Assembly (NCBI GenBank): GCA_019747615.1
Contig: JAIEQQ010000329.1
Span: forward strand, 1 to 7,304
DNA length: 7,304 nucleotides
Source: Phycisphaerales bacterium
Lineage (GTDB): Bacteria; Planctomycetota; Phycisphaerae; Phycisphaerales; UBA1924
Direction: 5' to 3'
Part shown: positions 1-7,304 of the stretch, one piece after another
Numbering within the stretch: the first letter of the stretch is position 1
How the letters are laid out: the number at the start of each line of letters is the position of its first letter
Program-made: the position numbers and the translations under genes
The notes under the pieces: model-generated
Database searches by the model: none
The model's input: the letters and a program-made list of their open reading frames with translations, nothing else
What the model was told of the DNA's origin: nothing

Positions 1-459
1 AATCTCCGCAGTGGTCAGCGAACGCACAAGGCCCATCTGCGCCGTCTGGCAAAACGTGCAGCCCATCGCGCAGCCCACCTGCGAGCTGACGCAGAGCGTG
101 TGGGCACGCTGGCGCGTGCGGCCGATCATCGGGATGAGCACGGATTCAACCTCGAGCGTGTCCGGCTGTGCGGGCACGCTGTTGAGCACGCTGAGCGGGG
201 AGCTTGCGCCGGGCGATGACGGAGCCGCGGCGGGCGTTGCGTGCGGCATCGCCCGCGACACGCGCTGCGTGAACTTCACGGTCACGCCCTCTTCGCTCTC
301 GCTGTGGTGCGTGCGGCCGATGGGCGGGATGTGGACCGGCGTCAGCGGGTCGTTGATGACGCCTTCGCGGTAGACGCGCGCGTAGCGATCGAACGCGCCG
401 GCGCGACCGCCCCGCATCGCCAGCGCGTGGCACGCCGCGGCGTAGTTCTCAGCGGTCAT
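1..459 (-). CDS. rlmN: RlmN-type radical SAM 23S rRNA methyltransferase, partial (C terminus beyond window)
   Basis: Reading leftward from an ATG at 459-457, 153 codons stay open to the window edge. Residues 123-139 read [17 protein letters not shown], the RlmN/Cfr signature; C130, C134 and C137 (CxxxCxxC) would hold the 4Fe-4S cluster that binds S-adenosylmethionine. RlmN methylates C2 of A2503 in 23S rRNA and A37 of some tRNAs, in the cytoplasm. The Val after SSQ and the following LTTAEI resemble RlmN more than Cfr. The N-terminal accessory domain is short (residues about 5-36), and an Ala/Pro/Ser-rich stretch at about 71-100 interrupts the strand pair that normally precedes the radical SAM domain. 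No Shine-Dalgarno site precedes the ATG, and an in-frame GTG at 480-478 is an alternative start. The catalytic cysteines of the C-terminal half lie outside the window. The family is secure; the exact rRNA position modified is inferred. Confidence 0.88.
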
Positions 460-502
460 TGAGAGCGGATCAGGGAGCACGGGCAAGTGTAAGTGGGGGG
501 AA

Positions 503-561
503 GTGGCGAAGTGGCAAAGTGACGAAGTGGCAGAGTGGCAGAGTGGCAGGGTGACAGGGTG
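503..561. repeat. Octamer tandem array, consensus GTGGCARA, 7 units
   Basis: Seven consecutive 8 bp units run from 503 to 558: GTGGCGAA, GTGGCAAA, GTGACGAA, GTGGCAGA twice, GTGGCAGG and GTGACAGG, then a partial GTG. Two copies of AAATGGCC follow directly at 562-577 with the same 8 bp period. Units differ by one or two transitions, as expected of a slippage-generated array that is decaying. It lies in the gap upstream of the rlmN-like gene. Function unknown. Confidence 0.9.
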
Positions 562-674
562 AAATGGCCAAATGGCCAGAGCTACGCACGATTTCTCGTA
601 TCAGTCCGTCTTCCGTTCCTTCCATCACTTCGTTGAGACGATTCGATTTCCTCACTCTGCCACTCTGCCACTTC
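524..674. repeat. 22 bp perfect inverted repeat, arms 524-545 and 653-674
   Basis: The array segment 524-545 recurs as an exact reverse complement at 653-674, with 107 bp between the arms. A transcript crossing both could fold into a long 22 bp stem with a large loop. The right arm is about two and a half octamer units in inverted orientation. This suggests a second, oppositely oriented insertion or copy of the same repeat family rather than a typical terminator, since no T-run follows either arm. Confidence 0.85.
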
Positions 675-795
675 ACCGCAGGCGTGCCCCAATCGTGCGA
701 CCACCTCGGCAACCCGCCTCAGGGCGTTCGCCTCCCGTGCGGCGTGCTCCTTGAGTGAAGTCTGCCCGCGGAGTGTCCGATAGCTCTGATGGAGC

Positions 796-834
796 CACCG
801 CAAGGGCGGTGCGCGCGAGCCCCCACGTGGGCTC
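796..834 (+). promoter_or_regulatory. Two consecutive hairpins in the PilZ gene leader
   Basis: CACCGC (796-801) pairs with GCGGTG (806-811) around the loop AAGG. GAGCCC (817-822) then pairs with GGGCTC (829-834), with the palindrome CCCACGTGGG at 822-831 inside the second element. The second stem ends directly before the AGGAG ribosome binding site (835-839). Neither is followed by a T-run, so they are not ordinary terminators. They could affect translation start, form a protein-binding palindrome, or be a dispersed palindromic repeat. No known riboswitch consensus was recognised. Confidence 0.5.
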
Positions 835-846
835 AGGAGCCTCGGC

Positions 847-1176
847 ATGAGCATCGATCGACGCCGTCACGCACGCTTGAACATGACCCGCCCGTGCAAG
901 GTGGTCGTGCGCTCGGCGCAGCGATTTCTCGCGGCTCGGACGACGAACGTCTCGGTGACCGGCGCGCTGATCGAGGTGCTGGCCGATCGCCCCCTCAGCG
1001 TGGGCGAGGTAATCGATGTCGCGATCTCATGGAACGATGCGCCGATCGTCCGCAGCTCTGAACTGGTCACCGCCGAGATCACCCGGGCGCTGGTGGGCCC
1101 CAGCGGCACGCAGACAATCGGTGTGCGTTTCGCGTCGCAGGGCGCGGGCGAGAATCAGCTCTCTCGCGTGGCCTGA
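847..1176 (+). CDS. Small single-domain PilZ protein (probable c-di-GMP receptor)
   Basis: This 109-residue protein is a stand-alone PilZ domain. PilZ domains bind cyclic di-GMP through an N-terminal RxxxR motif and a downstream [D/N]xSxxG motif. Both are visible: R6-RHA-R10 in a basic N-terminal run, and NVSVTG at residues 34-39. IGVRF at 91-95 matches the late strand of the barrel. There is no membrane segment or attached output domain, so it would act in the cytoplasm through a partner. The ATG is supported by AGGAG at 835-839, seven bases upstream. The gene overlaps the minus-strand gene at 1155-1562 by 22 bp, tail to tail. The c-di-GMP role is inferred from the motifs; the process it controls cannot be told from the neighbours. 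Confidence 0.85.
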   Translation: MSIDRRRHARLNMTRPCKVVVRSAQRFLAARTTNVSVTGALIEVLADRPLSVGEVIDVAISWNDAPIVRSSELVTAEITRALVGPSGTQTIGVRFASQGAGENQLSRVA

Positions 1177-1562
1177 GGGGCCAGCTCGCGCGAGACCTCG
1201 ACGGTGGGCGCATCGGTGCGCCCGCCGGGGATGCCGAGCTTGGTGAGCAGCGACGTGCGAGCGAACAGCAGCCGCGGCTTGGCCGGCGGGCGAAGCTCGA
1301 TCGTGCAGCCGAAGATCCCCTCGCAATCGAAATGCACCATCGCGCGATCGTCTTCGTCCACACGCACAAACGTGCCGGCGCAGACGCTTTCATCGCCCAA
1401 TGTGGCCTCGAACGTGTCGCGGTCCACATCCAGCCTGAGTGTCAGCGTGCGCTCGGCGCTGGCGTGCTCCGGTGCGCGGCCGATCAGCCAGCGCAGCGTG
1501 ACCACGGAGAACTCGCGATCAGGGCTCATGCGTGCAAATGCGTGGTCGTGGAGCATGGTCAT
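1155..1562 (-). CDS. Hypothetical protein, 135 aa, downstream of GbsR-type regulator
   Basis: I do not recognise this family. The 135-residue product has no signal peptide, membrane segment or metal-binding motif. Alternating strand-like stretches at about 19-27, 39-54, 58-69 and 73-100 suggest a small all-beta fold. It holds two cysteines in the middle region (in ESVCAG and FGCTIE). The start is supported by GGGAGAA at 1568-1574 just upstream of the ATG at 1562-1560; a second ATG lies two codons in. The gene begins 39 bp after the stop of the GbsR-type regulator on the same strand and has no hairpin in between, so the two are probably cotranscribed. Its last 22 bp overlap the end of the convergent PilZ gene. 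It is likely real because of the ribosome binding site, the spacing and the coding-like composition; its function is unknown. Confidence 0.75.
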   Translation of the reverse strand: MTMLHDHAFARMSPDREFSVVTLRWLIGRAPEHASAERTLTLRLDVDRDTFEATLGDESVCAGTFVRVDEDDRAMVHFDCEGIFGCTIELRPPAKPRLLFARTSLLTKLGIPGGRTDAPTVEVSRELAPQATRES

Positions 1563-1601
1563 CGGTGTTCTCCCGCGTGGGTGCGAGCGTGAGCGTCGTC
1601 A

Positions 1602-2159
1602 TCAGGAAGCGGGCGAGCCGCTCTGGAAATCCATGCCGCCGACAAGTGTCTCGGCGGTCTCTTTCATCACCTGGGCGTCCAGCGCCAGGAGCTTGCTGCC
1701 CATCTCATCAAAGAGCCGCAGCAGGGCGATCATGTCGTCAAGCCGCTGGTTGTGCTCGTCAACGCCCTCGCCGGTGGTGCGCGTCTCATCGCGGATCTCC
1801 GCAAGGCTCGCCAGCGCCGGGTGGATCTCGCGCTTCATGCGCTCGCGCAGGATCGCCTGCAGCATCGTCCACACGTCGCCCGCGGCTTCGAAGTACTCCT
1901 TGCGGTCCCCGCGCTTGTGGGCGCGATGGACCACACCCCAGTCGACCAGGGCGCGGAGGCTCATGCTCGCGTTGCCGCGGCTGATCTCCAGGCGTTCCAT
2001 CACGTCATCGGTGCACAGCGCCCGCCCAGAGATGAAGAGCAACGCGTGGACCTCGGCCATCGTGCGCGAGATGCCCCACGTAGAGCCCATCTGGCCCCAG
2101 GTCGCGATGAAGCGATCCTGAGCACTGGTGAGCGACGGCTTGGAGCGAGGGGTGGTCAT
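1602..2159 (-). CDS. GbsR/MarR-type transcriptional regulator
   Basis: The 185-residue product looks like a GbsR-family regulator, a branch of MarR-like winged-helix proteins that includes GbsR, OpuAR and CosR, which control osmoprotectant genes in other bacteria. The N terminus (about 9-30, with FIATWGQMGSTWGISR) matches the family's opening helix. The winged helix spans about 33-91, with the recognition helix near SRGNASMSLRALVDWG (60-75) and the basic wing HKRGDRKEYF (81-90). A long helical C-terminal part (about 96-170) would form the dimer. The ATG at 2159-2157 is preferred; a TTG at 2195 would add 12 residues that run through the likely promoter. No Shine-Dalgarno site is evident. No betaine or choline genes lie nearby, so the target is unclear. 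TTTCA/TGAAA boxes upstream suggest autoregulation, and the unknown gene behind it is probably in the same operon. Confidence 0.85.
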   Translation of the reverse strand: MTTPRSKPSLTSAQDRFIATWGQMGSTWGISRTMAEVHALLFISGRALCTDDVMERLEISRGNASMSLRALVDWGVVHRAHKRGDRKEYFEAAGDVWTMLQAILRERMKREIHPALASLAEIRDETRTTGEGVDEHNQRLDDMIALLRLFDEMGSKLLALDAQVMKETAETLVGGMDFQSGSPAS

Positions 2160-2189
2160 GGGGAGCGGAGGAAAGAGGTGAATCCGACC

Positions 2190-2245
2190 TTTCAATATAC
2201 GCTGAAACGGTTGAAAGATCGATCGACTTTCAGAAAAAAGTGAAA
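2190..2245. promoter_or_regulatory. Probable regulator operator/promoter: two TTTCA-N8-TGAAA dyads
   Basis: Two dyads with identical layout occur upstream of the GbsR-type gene: TTTCA 2190-2194 with TGAAA 2203-2207, and TTTCA 2228-2232 with TGAAA 2241-2245. Both spacers are 8 bp and the dyads start 38 bp apart. A fifth box, TGAAA at 2212-2216, pairs with 2228-2232 to make TGAAAG-N9-CTTTCA, with GATCGATC in the spacer. The minus-strand hexamer TATATT (2199-2194), a good -10 candidate, overlaps the edge and spacer of the proximal dyad. The segment is much more AT-rich than its surroundings. This fits autorepression by the regulator, by inference only. Confidence 0.55.
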
Positions 2246-2262
2246 AATGGACCGGTTCGGTC
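2234..2262 (-). terminator. Weak Rho-independent terminator after the UbiA-family gene
   Basis: On the minus strand GACCG (2262-2258) and CGGTC (2254-2250) form a 5 bp stem around a 3-base loop. It is followed by T-runs complementary to 2243-2247 and 2234-2239. It lies about 90 bp past the stop of the prenyltransferase gene and before the regulator promoter, which is a sensible place to insulate the two. The stem is short and the first T-run begins two bases after it, so efficiency is uncertain. It overlaps the distal operator dyad. Confidence 0.45.
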
Positions 2263-2275
2263 GGTTATCAGCCAC

Positions 2276-2306
2276 CTTGATGCCTCGATGCCTCCTGCCT
2301 TGGTGC
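2276..2306. repeat. Octamer array, TNGATGCC type, 4 units
   Basis: Four units of 8, 8, 7 and 8 bp follow each other: CTTGATGC, CTCGATGC, CTCCTGC and CTTGGTGC, then CTTC. The array sits in the 3' flank of the UbiA-family gene, between its stop codon and the putative terminator. It is more decayed than the other arrays but keeps the register. Confidence 0.65.
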
Positions 2307-2350
2307 CTTCTTCATGAATCAGCCACGACTGGTCGCGCAGGCGGCAGAAC

Positions 2351-3445
2351 TCAAAGCAGCACGTCAGCCACACCCGCGCCGCCCACCACGCACGACAGGA
2401 CGCCGTTGAGCGTGAAGAAGGCCATGGGCAGGCCCGCGAGGCCGCGCCGGATGAGGACGATGTGCTCGGCGACGAGGCAGATGCTGGCGGCGATCACGGC
2501 GCAGAGGAAGATCACGCCGAAGCGGTCTTCCAATCGCCAGGCCATGAGCAGGCCGATGATCGCGCCGACGTGCAGCACGCGGCTGAGGATCACGGCCCGC
2601 TTTGCGCCCAGAGCGGCGGGGATGCTGAAGAGGCCGGCGTTGCGATCGAAGGACTCATCTTGCAGCGCGTAGATGATGTCAAAGCCGGCGACCCAGCAAA
2701 GGACCATCGCGCTGAGGGCTAGGAGCGAGGGCGTGTTCGAGAGTGATTCGGGGTTGATGGCGATCGCCGCGGCGAGCGGCGAGATCGCGAGCGCCGAGCC
2801 GAGCAGGACGTGGCAGAGCGCGGTGAATCGTTTGGCGTACGAGTACAGCGCCAGCCAGAAAAGCACGGGCACTGAGAGCGCTAGGGGCCAGGGGTTCTGG
2901 AAGAACGCCAGGAATCCGGCACACAGCACGATGAACCCGGCGGCGCAGCCGAGCGCCATCGAGATCGCGACGGGGCGCGACAGCTTGCCCGAGGCCACGG
3001 CGCGCCCGCGCGTTCGCGGGTTCGCGGCGTCGAACGTCGCATCCGCCAAGCGATTCACCAGCATCGCCCACGTGCGAGCCAGCACCATGCACGCGATCAC
3101 CAGCGCGAGCTGGCCGCCGAAGCGAGACCAGTCGATCGGCACGTACGCCGGGAACTGCGGGCTGGGGTTGGGGATCGGCGCGAGCGTGGGGGCCGATGCG
3201 CTCAGGAACGCGCCGAGCACGGCAAAGGGCAGCGCGAAGATGGAGTGCGACAGCTTGATGTCCGCCGCGGCGATGAGCAGGGAGTTGGTCCGAGGCGCAG
3301 GCGGCGGCAACGATGGCGGCGAAGCCGACGGTGGCAGAGACGAGTGTTGGAGCGAAGTGGAGCCGGTCGCGGTGTTCGCAGCAGTCACGTCCACAGGATA
3401 CGGCCCCAAGCAAGGCGTCGCCGCCCGCGTACGCTCGGAGCGCAT
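2351..3445 (-). CDS. ubiA: UbiA-family polyprenyltransferase (4-hydroxybenzoate/menaquinone type)
   Basis: The 364-residue product is an integral membrane prenyltransferase of the UbiA family, which joins a polyprenyl diphosphate chain to an aromatic acceptor. Both Mg-diphosphate motifs are present: NRLADATFD (131-139, NRxxDxxxD) and DIIYALQDESFD (256-267, DxxYxxxD), the latter followed by RNAGLFSIP. Hydrophobic segments near 66-84, 112-130, 157-181, 185-202, 210-230, 240-260, 287-303, 309-332 and 341-363 fit the family's nine helices. The core begins near residue 56; the first 55 residues are Ser/Pro/Thr-rich and unusual, and no internal ATG offers a shorter start, though TTG or GTG codons near 13-20 could. 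The sequence resembles the 4-hydroxybenzoate prenyltransferase-like subgroup that includes MqnP of the futalosine menaquinone route, so mqnP is a real alternative name. It is transcribed away from the M24 peptidase gene. Confidence 0.9.
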   Translation of the reverse strand: MRSERTRAATPCLGPYPVDVTAANTATGSTSLQHSSLPPSASPPSLPPPAPRTNSLLIAAADIKLSHSIFALPFAVLGAFLSASAPTLAPIPNPSPQFPAYVPIDWSRFGGQLALVIACMVLARTWAMLVNRLADATFDAANPRTRGRAVASGKLSRPVAISMALGCAAGFIVLCAGFLAFFQNPWPLALSVPVLFWLALYSYAKRFTALCHVLLGSALAISPLAAAIAINPESLSNTPSLLALSAMVLCWVAGFDIIYALQDESFDRNAGLFSIPAALGAKRAVILSRVLHVGAIIGLLMAWRLEDRFGVIFLCAVIAASICLVAEHIVLIRRGLAGLPMAFFTLNGVLSCVVGGAGVADVLL

Positions 3446-3477
3446 CAGGACAACCCCGCGCTCGCGTCCCCGTCGTT

Positions 3478-3501
3478 TTCACGTTCATGTTCACGTTCAT
3501 G
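3478..3501. repeat. Hexamer array TTCAYG, 4 units (12 bp unit twice)
   Basis: TTCACGTTCATG is repeated exactly twice, which is also four hexamers of TTCAYG. It lies in the 85 bp divergent gap between the UbiA-family gene and the M24 peptidase gene, 30 bp before the peptidase ATG. It may therefore fall in the promoter or leader of either gene. Confidence 0.75.
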
Positions 3502-3530
3502 TTTGTCTTCCCCTCCCCGGAGCCCCGCCT

Positions 3531-4718
3531 ATGGACCTCCCATCGCTCCAGTCCTTCATGCTCGACCGTCGCATCGATGCGTGGGTGCTCTGGGACTTCC
3601 GTGGCAGCAATCCTGTGGCGCCACAGCTCTTCCCGGCGCCGACGGGCAAGCGCTGGACCACGCGCCGATTCGCGATCGTCATCCCCGCGCGGGGCGAGGT
3701 GACGGCCCTCGTCCACACGATCGACGCGACGCAGTTTGACAAGGACGCGTTCGCCAAACGCGTATACCTGTCGTGGCAGGACCTGCGGGCCGGGCTCAGC
3801 GAGCTGCTCAGCGGCTGCTCGCGCGTCGCGATGGAGTACTCGCCCGGCGGGCAGTTGCCCGCGGTGAGCTTTGTTGACGCCGGCGCCGTGGAGCTGGTGC
3901 GATCGCTGGGGCTGGAGGTGGTGAGTTCGGCGGACCTGATCCAGGCGAGCGTGGCGCGATGGAGCGAACACGCGGTGCGCGATCACTTGCACGTTTCCAA
4001 GCTCGTCGCGGACATCAAGGACAACGCCTTCGGCATGATCAGTAACGCCATCGGTGCCGGCGGCGGCGTACACATCACCGAGCGGCAGGTGCAGGAGTTC
4101 ATCCTCAGCGAGTTCGCACGCCACGGGCTGCAGACCGACGGCGAGCCGGTGGTGGCGGTCAACGCGCACGCGGGTGACCCGCACTTTGAAGTCTCGCACA
4201 CCGGCTCGTCAGAAATCAAGAGAGGCGACTGGGTGCTCATCGATCTCTGGGCCCGCACGCCCGGCGAGCAGCACATCTTCAGCGACATCACCTGGTGCGG
4301 CTGCGTCGGGCCGGTGAACGCCGAGCGCCGCAAGGTCTACGACAGCGTCCGACGCGCACGAGACGCGGCCCTTGCGCTCGCGCAGCAAGCCTGGTCACGG
4401 GGTGAGCCGATCCAGGGCTGGCAGCTTGACGACGCCGCGCGCAACGAACTCGTCAATGCCGGCTATCAGAAGTACATCCGCCATCGCACCGGCCACTCGC
4501 TCAGCCCCGGCCCCAAAGTCCACGGCGTCGGCATGAATCTGGACAACCTCGAAACCCGCGACACGCGACAGATGCTCCCGGGCATCGGCTACACCATCGA
4601 GCCCGGGCTCTACCTGCCGGACTTCGGCGTGCGACTGGAGATCAACGTCTACGTCGATCCCGCCAAGGGGCCGGTGGTGACGAGTTGTTTCCAGGACGAG
4701 CCGGTGGCGCTGGGGTGA
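3531..4718 (+). CDS. M24-family metallopeptidase (Xaa-Pro aminopeptidase/prolidase-like)
   Basis: The 395-residue product has an N-terminal creatinase-like domain (about 3-135) and a C-terminal pita-bread peptidase domain (about 150-385). Family members remove or cleave beside proline at peptide N termini using two metal ions. The five metal ligands are visible: D238 (VLIDLW), D252 (FSDIT), H322 (TGHSLS), E357 (TIEPGLYL) and E370 (RLEINVYV); H218 and H331 are the likely substrate-binding histidines. The two aspartates are 14 residues apart, not 11 as in E. coli PepP, which together with DLW and HSLS points to a distinct cytosolic subfamily. No signal peptide is seen. The ATG at 3531 is supported by GGAG at 3519-3522, eight bases upstream; the frame stays open 286 codons further upstream, but that part is antisense to the prenyltransferase gene and low-complexity. 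Substrate specificity cannot be told. Confidence 0.9.
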   Translation: MDLPSLQSFMLDRRIDAWVLWDFRGSNPVAPQLFPAPTGKRWTTRRFAIVIPARGEVTALVHTIDATQFDKDAFAKRVYLSWQDLRAGLSELLSGCSRVAMEYSPGGQLPAVSFVDAGAVELVRSLGLEVVSSADLIQASVARWSEHAVRDHLHVSKLVADIKDNAFGMISNAIGAGGGVHITERQVQEFILSEFARHGLQTDGEPVVAVNAHAGDPHFEVSHTGSSEIKRGDWVLIDLWARTPGEQHIFSDITWCGCVGPVNAERRKVYDSVRRARDAALALAQQAWSRGEPIQGWQLDDAARNELVNAGYQKYIRHRTGHSLSPGPKVHGVGMNLDNLETRDTRQMLPGIGYTIEPGLYLPDFGVRLEINVYVDPAKGPVVTSCFQDEPVALG

Positions 4719-4725
4719 GTGGGAA

Positions 4726-4767
4726 GGCACTAGGCACTAGGCACTAGGCATTGGGCACTGGGCACTG
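4726..4767. repeat. Heptamer array GGCACTR, 6 units
   Basis: Six 7 bp units begin seven bases after the M24 peptidase stop codon: GGCACTA three times, GGCATTG, then GGCACTG twice. The same family reappears in inverted orientation at 5571-5586 behind the secreted-protein gene. A 7 bp stem at 4789-4809 (GGCGCGG/CCGCGCC) follows without a T-run. Confidence 0.9.
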
Positions 4768-4844
4768 GGGAGTAGAAATCGCGAGACGGGCGCGGCGAAC
4801 CTCCGCGCCGTGCGAAGACACTCGCGCGACGCTGTGCATTTCCA

Positions 4845-4872
4845 CGATTGCCGATTGCCGAATCCCGATTGC
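4845..4872. repeat. Heptamer array CGATTGC, 4 units
   Basis: Four 7 bp units occur as CGATTGC, CGATTGC, CGAATCC and CGATTGC, followed by the partial match CGA. This second, unrelated heptamer array in the 213 bp gap lies about 60 bp past the ferredoxin stop codon. A small 5 bp stem at 4891-4904 (GCGCT/AGCGC) sits between them. Confidence 0.75.
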
Positions 4873-4931
4873 CGACACGCAACCCCGCCCGCGCTCTTAA
4901 GCGCAAAGGGTCTCATCCGCGCCACCGCCGA

Positions 4932-5195
4932 TCACTTCGTCTTGTAGTAATCCAGATTGACCTGGACGAAGTTGTTCCATTCCTTGGGCAGATCTTCCTC
5001 AGGGAAGATGGCCTTGACGGGGCATTCGTCGACGCAGAGGCCGCAGTCGATGCAGGTGCCCGGGTCGATGTAGAGCTGGTTGGTCTTGCCGAAATCCGGC
5101 TCGTTCTTGGTCGGGTGGATGCAGTCGACGGGACAGACCTCGACGCAGGAGGTGTCCTTGGTTCCGACGCAAGGCTCAGCGATGACGTGTGGCAT
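4932..5195 (-). CDS. fdxA: 7Fe ferredoxin (one 3Fe-4S and one 4Fe-4S cluster)
   Basis: This 87-residue soluble ferredoxin carries low-potential electrons between cytoplasmic redox enzymes. The first cysteine block is C9-x7-C17-x3-C21-P, without the middle cysteine of 8Fe ferredoxins. The second is C48-x2-C51-x2-C54-x3-C58-P. By analogy with Azotobacter vinelandii ferredoxin I, C9, C17 and C58 would hold a 3Fe-4S cluster, and C21, C48, C51 and C54 a 4Fe-4S cluster. C25 corresponds to the free cysteine in that protein. The length fits the short FdxA-type group rather than longer forms with an extended C terminus. The ATG at 5195 has GAGGT at 5209-5205 about nine bases upstream. It is a lone minus-strand gene with repeat-filled gaps on both sides. 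The partner enzyme is not apparent. Confidence 0.92.
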   Translation of the reverse strand: MPHVIAEPCVGTKDTSCVEVCPVDCIHPTKNEPDFGKTNQLYIDPGTCIDCGLCVDECPVKAIFPEEDLPKEWNNFVQVNLDYYKTK

Positions 5196-5271
5196 GGGGC
5201 GATGACCTCGGCTTCGTGCGAACTCAGCGGCGGGAAATCGCCGCGTGGAACATGGTAGCCGATGAGATCAT

Positions 5272-5351
5272 GGGCTCAAGGGATCAAGGGATCAAGGGAT
5301 CAAGGGATCAAGGGATCAAGGGATCGAGGGATCAAGGGATCGAGGGATCGA
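5272..5351. repeat. Octamer array GGGATCRA, 10 units
   Basis: Ten 8 bp units run without interruption: one GGGCTCAA, five GGGATCAA, then GGGATCGA, GGGATCAA and two GGGATCGA. It is the longest and most regular array in the window. Nine of the units contain GATC, giving nine potential Dam-type sites exactly 8 bp apart. It lies 77 bp upstream of the ferredoxin start codon, in or near its promoter region. Variant units cluster at the right end, consistent with growth by slippage and loss of identity from the edge. Confidence 0.95.
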
Positions 5352-5436
5352 GCGGACCGAGGGGCTGGGGAAATCGTGGGGCGTGGCTTTGGCGCGGCTC
5401 TGAGCTCGCGGCGGTCCGCCATGGGCACCGGCGCAC

Positions 5437-5467
5437 AAAAAGCCCCGGCTCAGATGAGCCGGGGCTT
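5437..5467 (-). terminator. Rho-independent terminator of the secreted-protein gene
   Basis: Positions 5440-5451 and 5456-5467 form a perfect 12 bp stem (AAGCCCCGGCTC with its complement) around a 4-base loop. On the minus strand the stem runs into TTTTT (5441-5437), which makes it a classic intrinsic terminator in that direction. It lies 127 bp past the stop codon of the gene ending at 5594. The plus-strand side has no T-run. Confidence 0.9.
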
Positions 5468-5478
5468 GGAGTTACGGG

Positions 5479-5499
5479 CGAGTTGCGAGTTCCGAGTCG
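5479..5499. repeat. Short heptamer array CGAGTYS, 3 units
   Basis: CGAGTTG, CGAGTTC and CGAGTCG follow each other, in the 3' untranslated flank of the secreted-protein gene just before its terminator on the minus strand. At three units it is near the limit of what can be called an array, but it fits the 7 bp pattern of the other gaps. Confidence 0.5.
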
Positions 5500-5528
5500 G
5501 GCCTTGTGTCAGCCGGGTGTCTGCGGGA

Positions 5529-5548
5529 GGCAGGCGAGGACGCCTGCC
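5529..5548. repeat. Palindrome GGCAGGCG-AGGA-CGCCTGCC
   Basis: An 8 bp perfect stem with a 4-base loop lies 46 bp past the stop codon of the secreted-protein gene, without a T-run. It could protect the 3' end of the message or be a member of a dispersed palindrome family. I cannot test copy number from one window. Confidence 0.55.
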
Positions 5549-5570
5549 CCACGGGACCTGATGTCTCGTG

Positions 5571-5586
5571 CCCAGTGCCCAGTGCC
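5571..5586. repeat. Inverted copy of the GGCACTG heptamer array
   Basis: These 16 bases are the exact reverse complement of 4754-4769, two units plus two bases of the GGCACTR array behind the M24 peptidase gene. This copy starts eight bases past the stop codon of the secreted-protein gene. On the coding strand of the gene just upstream, both copies read GGCACTG and sit within ten bases of a stop codon. Confidence 0.8.
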
Positions 5587-5593
5587 TTGCCGT

Positions 5594-7304
5594 TCAGAAC
5601 GTGCAGCCGTCGAAGTAGATGGCGAAGAAGCGGTTGTAGTCGCCCTCGGTCACGCCGTTGTTGACGTTGGGGGCCACGCCGCCGGCGCCGAACGGCGGCA
5701 GCGGGATGCCCTGATCGTCGGCGATGTCGCAGAACGCCGAGGCTTCGAAGTAGTTGGCGAAGAAGACGTTGTAGTCACCCTCGGTCACGCCGTTGTTGGG
5801 GACCAGCGGGTCCGGCGGCGTGGTGGCGTTGTGGATGGGCTGACCGGCGTCGTTGGCGATGTCCGCGGGGTTGCAGCGCGCGGCAAAGGGCGTGCCCTGA
5901 CCCACGATGAACTTGAACCACAGGACCTCGAAGGCCTCGGAGGTCGTCGCGGCGACATTGCGATCGCCGACTGAGTCGGTGATGCGGAACGAGCGGTTCT
6001 GCCCGACGGTGGTGATGTTGGTCACGGTGATGCCGGCGTAATCGGTCACGTTGGGGGTGACGAAGTCGTCGTCGGTCGGGGCCGGCAGGTTCGTGGCGGT
6101 GTTGAACGCACCCATCGCCAGGTAGTAGGTGCCGGGAACGAACGTCCGGGTCAGACGCGAGCCGAGGCTGGCGGTGTCGGGCTCGTCATCGTTGCCGAAG
6201 TCCGGGATGGGGTTGAAGTTGGAGTCGTAGATCCACAGGTCGGTGTCGGTTTGGCCGGCGCCAGTGGTGCCGACGGTGGTGATGACGATCGAGCCTGCGT
6301 TGAAGTTCCCGCCGGCGATGTCAACCGGAACGACCGGTGCTGCGGTGAGGGTCAGGGTGTAGCTTTCGACGCCAGCAGCGCCGCCAGCGACGCCGACGAA
6401 GATCTTGCGAGCGTTCGCGTCGGCGTTGTTGCCGCCGCCGTACCACTGAACAAACGGATCGGTACCGGGCGAGGTCTGGAGAATGGCGTTCGTCCCCAGG
6501 TTGATGACACCGTCGGTCTGTGTCAGGCCGCGGAGCGTGACAGTCTGCGACGGGGTGTCGGAGGCGAGCACGAGGCGGTAGCGGGTCAGGCCGCTGACGC
6601 CCGCCGGCGTGCCGACGACGAAGTAGTCGGTCTCGCCCGCAGCGTTGCCGCAGAGGTTCTGGCCCGGCGTGAGGGTTGCGGGAGTTGCGGTGTCCTTGGA
6701 GTCGTTGGGCTCAACCTCGCTGACGGTGCAGACCGGCGCGGGAGGAGCGACGAACAGGGCGAACTGGAAGGTGTTCTCAGCAGCACCGAGGATGCCGGTG
6801 CCCTTGCGGCCGATCATGAAGTAGTAGCGGGTGCCGGCGGTCAGGTTTGCCCGGACGCGAGCGCGACCGGCACCGCTGTCATTGCAAGCGACCTCGGTGA
6901 ACGCGCCGGCGCACGGGCTGCCCGGCGTGCTGGTGGTGTAGAGGGCGACGATGGTGTCCCCAACGTTGGTGGCGGGAGCCTCCGACGCGGTGGTCGAGAG
7001 GATGTACTCGCCGCTGGCGGTGGGCTGATAGGAGAACCACATCGTGTAGTTCACGGCGGTGGCGCCGGCGCAGGAGAAGGCCGGATCGACAGGATTGCCG
7101 GTGGCGCCCGTCATGATGTACGACGGGGAGACGAACGGCAGGGCGAAGCCGGGCGTGGTGTTGACGTTGATCGCGCCGGCACAGTTGTCGTTCGAGGGTG
7201 CGGTGGGCGGCGGAACGAAGTTGGTGATGGCGAAGCGAACGGTGTTGACGTTGCCAGTGATGTCGCCGTTGTCGTAGCGGCCGATCATGAACAGGTACTG
7301 CTGG
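5594..7304 (-). CDS. Secreted multi-domain protein with paired dockerin-like C-terminal tag, partial (N terminus beyond window)
   Basis: The frame is open to the window edge, giving 569 complete residues (numbered here from the codon at 7303) and a TGA at 5596-5594. Residues 1-31 end one beta-sandwich module; 37-190 form a second copy: FMIGR recurs at 5-9 and 162-166, and SNDNC opens the copy at 37-41. A prepeptidase C-terminal-like module follows, with EVEPNDS at 196-202. A further beta-rich module at about 325-465 holds DTDLWIYD (353-360). Residues 477-569 carry two dockerin-like repeats, each with a Cys-led CxxADI or CDIADD stretch and then NNGVTEGDYN (503-512 and 548-557) and an FF..YF helix; a Gly-Cys pair lies near the end. 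Such tails occur in planctomycete exported proteins and probably serve surface attachment. No catalytic domain is visible; any enzyme part or signal peptide would be upstream. A terminator follows at 5437-5467. Confidence 0.85.
   Translation of the reverse strand, partial: QQYLFMIGRYDNGDITGNVNTVRFAITNFVPPPTAPSNDNCAGAINVNTTPGFALPFVSPSYIMTGATGNPVDPAFSCAGATAVNYTMWFSYQPTASGEYILSTTASEAPATNVGDTIVALYTTSTPGSPCAGAFTEVACNDSGAGRARVRANLTAGTRYYFMIGRKGTGILGAAENTFQFALFVAPPAPVCTVSEVEPNDSKDTATPATLTPGQNLCGNAAGETDYFVVGTPAGVSGLTRYRLVLASDTPSQTVTLRGLTQTDGVINLGTNAILQTSPGTDPFVQWYGGGNNADANARKIFVGVAGGAAGVESYTLTLTAAPVVPVDIAGGNFNAGSIVITTVGTTGAGQTDTDLWIYDSNFNPIPDFGNDDEPDTASLGSRLTRTFVPGTYYLAMGAFNTATNLPAPTDDDFVTPNVTDYAGITVTNITTVGQNRSFRITDSVGDRNVAATTSEAFEVLWFKFIVGQGTPFAARCNPADIANDAGQPIHNATTPPDPLVPNNGVTEGDYNVFFANYFEASAFCDIADDQGIPLPPFGAGGVAPNVNNGVTEGDYNRFFAIYFDGCTF

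What the first reader, a model, noticed from the sequence alone, without database searches (positions are those of the whole stretch)
460..5593. Every sizeable intergenic gap carries its own 6-8 bp tandem array, each with a different unit
Seen directly: arrays at 503-561 (GTGGCARA), 2276-2306 (TNGATGCC), 3478-3501 (TTCAYG), 4726-4767 (GGCACTR), 4845-4872 (CGATTGC), 5272-5351 (GGGATCRA) and 5479-5499 (CGAGTYS). All five gaps over 80 bp have at least one; the 39 bp gap and the overlapping pair have none. Unit length stays at 6-8 bp while the sequence changes, so this is not one mobile repeat spreading. Short heptamer repeats (STRR) are known in heterocystous cyanobacteria; the likeness here is only in form. 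A process that makes short-unit arrays in non-coding DNA, or selection for them as spacers or binding platforms, would be of general interest.
Basis: partly seen in the sequence, partly recalled or inferred. Interest (0 to 1): 0.75.

Follow-up and report, generated by a model that had tools for sequence, protein, structure and literature searches.

The report
Outward-pointing short repeats between genes
The gaps between this bacterium's genes hold short 6-8 letter repeats drawn from a shared word list, and in the genomes sampled each word tends to point away from the nearest gene, a rule that earlier work had described for guanine-rich words only.

Summary
The arrays are real: 10 in the window's gaps versus 0.17 in shuffles. 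The window is unusually rich: in its nearest held relative 117 of 366 gaps of 80 bp or more have one. 'Each a different unit' is partly wrong: two words recur in the window in reverse, and the words form a genome-wide list. Many arrays are copies of imperfect 20-35 bp modules at different sites, so copying matters as well as slippage. Orthologous slots can keep an array but change its word. Main result, a polarity rule: read outward from the nearest gene end, start or stop, arrays show their G-richer strand, 216 outward to 51 inward within 40 nt, 50:36 beyond 80 nt (three sets). Of 25 words seen at both kinds of edge, 22 keep one outward form. Arrays without GGG obey too (146:40), so quadruplexes are not needed. 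Inverted pairs have a G-rich 5' arm (79:5) and show no G-U preference (39:37). This is a new variant of the cyanobacterial STRR / Xanthomonas GGGAATC kind. The mechanism (DNA-level copying plus an orientation filter) is inferred.

The parts
501..548 (+). array of GTGGCARA (8 bp) in gap A, G-rich form pointing away from the RlmN-like gene start; 5' arm of an inverted pair
   Evidence: fold of 519-676 has z -5.06
562..578 (+). two units of AAATGGCC in gap A; the same word forms the whole pair in G001
653..672 (-). array of the same word as 501-548 in reverse; 3' arm of the pair
2275..2294 (-). short array CCTCGATG in gap B, identical in the relative
3478..3503 (-). 12-bp alternation TTCACG/TTCATG in gap C, 27 nt before the M24 peptidase start; 22-mer also at L115 and L118 besides the orthologue
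4725..4766 (+). array GGCACTR, 6 nt after the M24 peptidase stop; the orthologous slot in G001 holds GGGAATC
4845..4875 (-). dispersed module CGGCAATCGGGATTCGGCAATCGGCAATCGTGRAA (reverse), next to the ferredoxin stop
5266..5349 (+). array GGGATCRA, about 10 units, upstream of the ferredoxin start; a single GGGATCGAGG unit in G001
5478..5497 (+). array GAGTTSC beside a hairpin-T-run terminator-like site; the slot holds CGATTGCC in G001; the one inward-pointing array of the window
5568..5586 (-). array GGCACTG (reverse), 7 nt after the stop of the gene at 5594-7304

Best explanation
These are the form, in this bacterium, of the short tandem heptamer repeats known from cyanobacteria and Xanthomonas: a genome-wide set of roughly 20-60 bp intergenic modules, each built from 6-8 bp units of a limited word list. 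SHOWN in the samples: enrichment in gaps; a shared word list; copies of imperfect modules at different sites; unit-number change; word replacement at a fixed slot; polarity outward from the nearest gene end at both starts and stops; inverted pairs, in excess of chance, whose 5' arm is G-rich. INFERRED mechanism: modules spread by DNA-level copying between gaps (template switching or gene conversion during repair or replication, with existing arrays as landing homology); slippage changes unit number; strand switching within an inverted pair can rewrite one arm from the other; near gene ends, copies in the inward orientation are lost, which acts as a filter. My confidence is about 0.8 in the description and about 0.35 in this copying-plus-filter mechanism; the figure below is for the whole.
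For: Copying: 22-mers with internal breaks of the 7-bp period recur in gaps (one at 9 places in 8 stretches, one at 6 in 6, of 40 stretches); contexts share mostly the module only; modules occur in varied combinations after paralogous stop codons. Slot persistence with word change: window versus G001, gaps A, D and E; ribosomal-protein-operon gaps of nine cyanobacterial genomes. Polarity within 40 nt, three sets pooled: 216 outward, 51 inward; start edges 88:10, stop edges 128:41; convergent gaps 39:11; only array of its gap 72:23; no stop codon in six frames 59:10; no GGG/CCC 146:40. Per word: 22 of 25 words seen at both edges keep the same outward form; 177 of 193 placements of repeated words are in the majority form. 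Window: 8 of 9 arrays with a G-C skew point outward. DNA level: in arms of tandem gaps 39 G-U versus 37 A-C mismatches on the sense strand. Lineage-specific density: 1.49 arrays per gap-kb in G001, 0.41 in same-genus G200, 0 in 7 of 10 other family genomes (one stretch each).
Against: No insertion with a clean empty site was seen. Part of the copying could be gene conversion of paralogous 3' flanks (33 of 221 arrays lie within 350 bp of the 3' end of one paralogous domain family). The polarity filter has no proven cause. Arrays are copies of each other, so counts are not independent; per word the G-rich-outward majority is 76:25 over three sets and only 24:11 (p 0.04) in G001. In G001 25 of 221 arrays have an inverted partner (null 9.9), so most are single; in cyanobacteria the excess (38 of 159 versus null 18.8) vanishes at the strictest score (8 versus 7.5). 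Window gap D folds no better than shuffles (z +0.78) though G001's does (z -2.56). G200 is poor in arrays in the sampled stretches but has more exact copies of two words than G001 (30 versus 22, 21 versus 6), which weakens the 'recent burst' reading. A published sample of 22 intergenic TAACTGA sets in Microcystis had 8 in reverse orientation to a start codon (PMC4679880, passages). Gene ends come from my own simple caller, which missed the UbiA gene of this window.
Confidence: 0.55

Rival explanations
1. Local slippage: each gap grew its own array by replication slippage from a chance seed, and selection removed arrays from genes. No copying and no special orientation.
For: Copy numbers differ by whole units in orthologous gaps (window 10 versus about 1 unit of GGGATCRA; 7-nt steps in cyanobacteria). 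Rehm et al. cite a suggestion that heptamers slip easily (PMC4692102, discussion read).
Against: 210 exact heptamer dimers in G001 gaps fall into 50 classes led by a dozen (about 1,170 classes are possible, my estimate), imperfections are shared between sites, and orientation is non-random.
Confidence: 0.12
2. Transcript-level selection: arrays are tolerated or favoured only as G-poor leaders before start codons and G-rich trailers after stop codons (initiation, ribosome release, RNA decay), so the outward polarity is really a leader/trailer rule.
For: Bias is strongest at starts (88:10) and confined to about 80 nt from gene ends. Arrays are rarer in divergent gaps (0.95 per kb versus 2.9 tandem and 4.2 convergent, 20 stretches). 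TAACTGA sits just before start codons in Beggiatoaceae (PMC4679880, abstract and passages).
Against: Stop edges (128:41) and convergent gaps (39:11), where no start is involved, show the bias too. Five arrays near tRNA genes, which are not translated, split 3:2 and decide nothing.
Confidence: 0.25
3. RNA hairpins: inverted array pairs act as transcript stem-loops (terminators, processing or stabilising elements).
For: Inverted partners within 120 bp: 20 of 32 gap arrays in G146, G175 and G199 (null 0.8), 38 of 159 in cyanobacterial loci (null 18.8), 28 of 103 in other phyla (null 11.9). Gap A keeps a pair in both relatives with different words.
Against: No G-U over A-C excess on the sense strand (39:37); most arrays of G001 have no partner; folding scores of cyanobacterial gaps are mostly modest (z between about -3.4 and 0.2, one gap -6.6).
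Confidence: 0.12
4. G-quadruplex elements, as proposed for GGGAATC and GGGGAYT repeats.
For: The published words have G-tracts and the same orientation rule (PMC4692102, sections read); GGGAATC occurs here.
Against: Arrays without any GGG or CCC follow the rule, 146:40; the window's CGATTGC and TTCACG/TTCATG arrays cannot make G-tracts of three.
Confidence: 0.04
5. End extension: breaks in gaps are healed after the two 3' ends, which both read outward from their genes, have been extended with short G-richer units, as at telomeres.
For: Explains polarity at both edges independent of transcription, inverted pairs with G-rich 5' arm (79:5), and lack of RNA signature.
Against: No RVT_1 reverse transcriptase in G001 or G200 (MAGs 88 and 92% complete); the polarity should persist far from gene ends but is 50:36 beyond 80 nt; sharp-ended copied modules are not predicted.
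Confidence: 0.07

Closest known systems
Cyanobacterial short tandemly repeated repetitive (STRR) heptamers
   Same: Heptamer arrays between genes; CTGACAA arrays occur in nine cyanobacterial genomes (which were picked for that word) and in G001, and GAGTGCT arrays in G001, G200 and three of the nine.
   Different: The original STRR papers were not read (recalled, and mentioned in PMC4692102); here many words incl. 6- and 8-mers coexist, and GGCACTG is absent from the nine genomes.
G-rich GGGAATC / GGGGAYT repeats of Xanthomonas and Nostoc (Rehm et al. 2015, PMC4692102; abstract and sections 3, 10, 13, 14, 16 read)
   Same: Gap location, inverted 'convergent' pairs, nearer to the gene on the 5' side of the G-rich strand whatever the gene direction, few in divergent gaps, length change between relatives.
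   Different: They studied G-tract words and considered quadruplexes; here the rule holds for words without G-tracts and words are swapped at slots, whereas they found 83% of Xcc repeats kept as G-rich patterns in Xac.
TAACTGA repeats of Beggiatoaceae and others (PMC4679880; abstract and passages read)
   Same: Heptamer arrays, patchy across phyla, mostly forward before start codons in BOGUAY, indels of 7 nt.
   Different: One word; proposed as translational regulator sites; a Microcystis sample there was mixed in orientation.
REP/BIME and small dispersed repeats
   Same: Short dispersed intergenic modules, inverted arrangement, mosaics.
   Different: Those are palindromic units without internal 7-bp periodicity; no RAYT-type link was tested (families recalled; only search listings seen).
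Heptanucleotide elements of Geobacter metallireducens (PMC2700814; passages read)
   Same: Families of dispersed elements of four or five tandem heptamers, some paired on opposite strands.
   Different: Different words; called putative regulator sites.

Membership tests
STRR-type heptamer repeats | tandem units of 7 bp, enriched outside genes | tested here: met
   116 period-7 gap arrays versus 25 in coding sequence; 78 versus 2.15 in shuffles
STRR-type heptamer repeats | multicopy dispersed words shared between loci | tested here: met
STRR-type heptamer repeats | same words as in cyanobacteria | tested here: inconclusive
   two of three words tested are shared, one is not; reversed-word control also rings in five of the nine cyanobacterial genomes
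Rehm G-rich repeats | GGGANTN or GGGGAYT unit able to form a quadruplex | tested here: not met
   most words lack a GGG tract; GGGAATC is one word of many
Rehm G-rich repeats | G-rich strand nearer to the 5' neighbouring gene whatever its direction | tested here: met
   216:51 within 40 nt
REP/BIME elements | palindromic unit and associated RAYT transposase | not tested
   units are not palindromes by inspection; no RAYT search was run
Slippage-made simple sequence repeats | independent origin at each site | tested here: not met
   shared imperfections at different sites
RNA stem-loop elements | G-U pairs tolerated over A-C on the transcribed strand | tested here: not met
   39 versus 37

The most novel reading that the evidence does not exclude
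Gene borders are marked symmetrically, independent of transcription and of any particular word: a DNA-level process (extension or copying at 3' ends in gaps, filtered at gene ends) lays short repeats so that each word reads outward from genes on both sides, in several phyla, with words freely exchangeable at fixed slots. The word carries polarity, not a fixed meaning.
Probability: 0.15. Interest if true: 0.88.

Novelty: new variant of a known kind. Interest (0 to 1): 0.6.

Why it matters
Heptamer arrays have been known for decades without an explanation, and the published proposals are word-specific (quadruplexes for GGGAATC, translational sites for TAACTGA). A polarity rule that holds for many unrelated words and in several phyla calls for one common cause and makes it testable: the same word should flip strand between starts and stops. 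It also shows fast turnover of intergenic sequence by copying of tiny modules, which matters for reading promoters, leaders and terminators in such genomes.

Tried and rejected
Whole-genome tandem-repeat scan: not available, so a 22% sample of G001 was used. Resident reverse transcriptase as the maker: no RVT_1 match in G001 or G200; 12 of 41 genomes searched have one. RNA hairpin reading: wobble test negative. Orientation simply by transcription direction: in tandem gaps the words are mixed; the rule appears only relative to the nearest gene end. Artefact from stop codons inside words shaping the gene calls: arrays free of stops in six frames still give 59:10. tRNA edges as an untranslated control: 5 arrays, 3 outward, 2 inward, too few. 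Phage vector of the CGGCAATC module: no exact match in viral contigs. Annotated Nostoc plasmid as a control: accession not in the collections, not pursued. Ku/LigD search planned, not run. Literature searches for this polarity or for Planctomycetes arrays: (eight of ten allowed); none listed a multi-word report, but only open-licence papers are held, and I read only those named.
Full report
Setting. The window's own assembly is not held; the nearest held genome, G001 (an assembly of 3.5 Mb, 240 contigs, 88% complete), is about 93-94% identical over window 1-4718 and 85-90% beyond 4843. It is the yardstick here, sampled by 40 stretches, 777,664 bp. The window encodes an RlmN-like fragment, a PilZ protein, a MarR-like regulator, a UbiA-type prenyltransferase, an M24 peptidase, a ferredoxin and a secreted-looking protein without family match.

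The observation. Ten arrays of unit 6-8 (or 12, 16) bp lie in the five large gaps; shuffles give 0.17. In G001, period 7 dominates the gaps: 116 arrays against 25 in six times as much coding sequence, 78 against 2.15 expected in the first 20 stretches. But only 117 of 366 gaps of 80 bp or more have an array, so the window is a rich spot. Arrays per gap-kb: convergent 4.2, tandem 2.9, divergent 0.95 (20 stretches).

Words are shared and copied. 210 exact heptamer dimers in G001 gaps fall into 50 classes, led by AATCGGC 27, AAGGCTG 18, ACTCAGC 16, ACTGGGC 14, AACTGAC 13, ACTCGCG 13. Exact 22-mers with internal breaks of period recur, e.g. CGGCAATCGGGATTCGGCAATC at 9 places in 8 of 40 stretches. 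With one mismatch it is at 15 places, the window and its orthologue included; most flanks are unrelated and the right end tends to read CGTGRAA. After the stop codons of genes sharing a C-terminal domain, modules appear in changing combinations ahead of a terminator-like hairpin; 26 of 595 sampled genes carry that domain by a motif search, and only 33 of 221 arrays are near their ends, so gene-family duplication is not the whole story.

Slots persist, words change. Between window and G001: gap A has a GTGGCAGA inverted pair in one, an AAATGGCC pair in the other (folding z -5.06 and -2.01); gap D begins with GGCACTR in one, GGGAATC in the other; in gap E a GAGTTSC array faces a CGATTGCC module, and GGGATCRA has about ten units against about one; gaps B and C keep theirs, though G001 has an extra stretch of about 650 bp beside the B array. 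In nine cyanobacterial genomes the locus of L148 is found at 79-92% identity (plus L148's own genome). Read by eye, all nine keep heptad arms in gap 2, with changes in 7-nt steps. In gap 3, three have AACTGAC, one (91% identical) has AAAATCC and five have none that I recognise. The gene names there (ribosomal proteins) are from recall.

Polarity. Taking each gap array and reading outward from the nearest gene end, the strand with more G than C is shown by 95 against 26 (G001), 75 against 16 (37 cyanobacterial loci) and 46 against 9 (40 loci titled as other phyla) within 40 nt: 216:51. Start edges 88:10, stop edges 128:41, convergent gaps 39:11, only array of the gap 72:23, arrays free of stops in six frames 59:10, arrays without GGG/CCC 146:40; beyond 80 nt 50:36. 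A keto skew is also seen (82:37, 70:23, 43:13), while T over A runs against it in G001 (47:68) and with it in the others. Independent of composition, 22 of 25 words seen at both edge kinds keep the same outward form, and 177 of 193 placements of repeated words are in the majority form. Non-array gap DNA shows at most a weak trend, near starts. In the window, 8 of 9 arrays with a skew point outward; the exception is 5478-5497.

Inverted pairs. Partners within 120 bp: 20 of 32 arrays in G146, G175 and G199 (null 0.8), 38 of 159 cyanobacterial (null 18.8), 28 of 103 other (null 11.9); at the strictest score the last two sets do not exceed chance (8 versus 7.5, 9 versus 7.5). The 5' arm is G-rich in 79 and C-rich in 5, both arms of a pair being counted; in a second count of 63 pairs 53 and 8. 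In G001 25 of 221 (null 9.9, partners within 150 bp). In arms of tandem gaps the sense strand has 39 G-U and 37 A-C mismatches: no sign of selection for an RNA stem.

Distribution. CGATTGC x3 is in 6 of 199 genomes of the phylum (31 overlapping matches in G001, 24, 68 and 8 in three others, singles in two), absent from four same-family genomes of another genus; reversed control 0 in all. GAGTGCT x3: 5 of 16 genomes, incl. three cyanobacteria, control 0. GGCACTG x3: 2 of 16, G001 and G200 only. CTGACAA x3: G001 and the nine cyanobacteria, which were chosen for it; the reversed word also occurs in five of these (4, 45, 128, 1, 1), so other words are in use too. Viral contigs: 55 stretches for CTGACAA x3, 5 for the reversed word. 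Density in sampled stretches: G001 1.49 per gap-kb, G200 0.41, seven of ten other family genomes 0, from one stretch each; yet G200 has more exact matches of two words than G001.

Reading. The description is firm; the mechanism is not. Copying of modules between gaps plus slippage explains shared imperfections, unit steps and slot-wise word change. The outward rule needs something that acts at gene ends at both starts and stops. A filter against the inward strand near gene ends fits the fading by 80 nt; end extension at breaks would explain the symmetry but not the fading or the sharp-ended copies. Rehm et al. reported the same geometry for G-rich words and considered quadruplexes (PMC4692102); since words without G-tracts obey, that cannot be the general cause. 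Limits: simple gene caller of my own, assemblies from metagenomes, copies not independent, cyanobacterial and other loci selected by one word.

Noticed in passing
L286, L297, L309, L320 (IMGVR_UViG_3300043379_000009): A 42.6-kb viral-collection contig carries many heptad arrays, several as inverted pairs; it may be a phage or mislabelled chromosome.
   Followed up: partly
window 5521-5560; 14 places in the G001 sample: A non-periodic dispersed hairpin, GTGGGGCAGGCGTCCCGCCTGCC with one mismatch allowed, occurs at 14 places in the G001 stretches, mostly gaps; the window has a three-base-longer-loop form.
   Followed up: partly
window 2325-2355 versus L003: G001 has about 650 bp extra here, right beside an array, without counterpart in the window.
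   Followed up: no
window 5594-5885: The C-terminal coding region of the last gene is similar to dozens of places in G001; their 3' flanks share modules. No Pfam or NCBIfam match.
   Followed up: partly
G259, G260: The backwards-read control word AACAGTC is itself a frequent array word there (45 and 128 matches).
   Followed up: no
G001 heptad words: Within a heptad some positions vary more than others (e.g. GAGG+NNN, GCTGA+NN), seen by eye.
   Followed up: no
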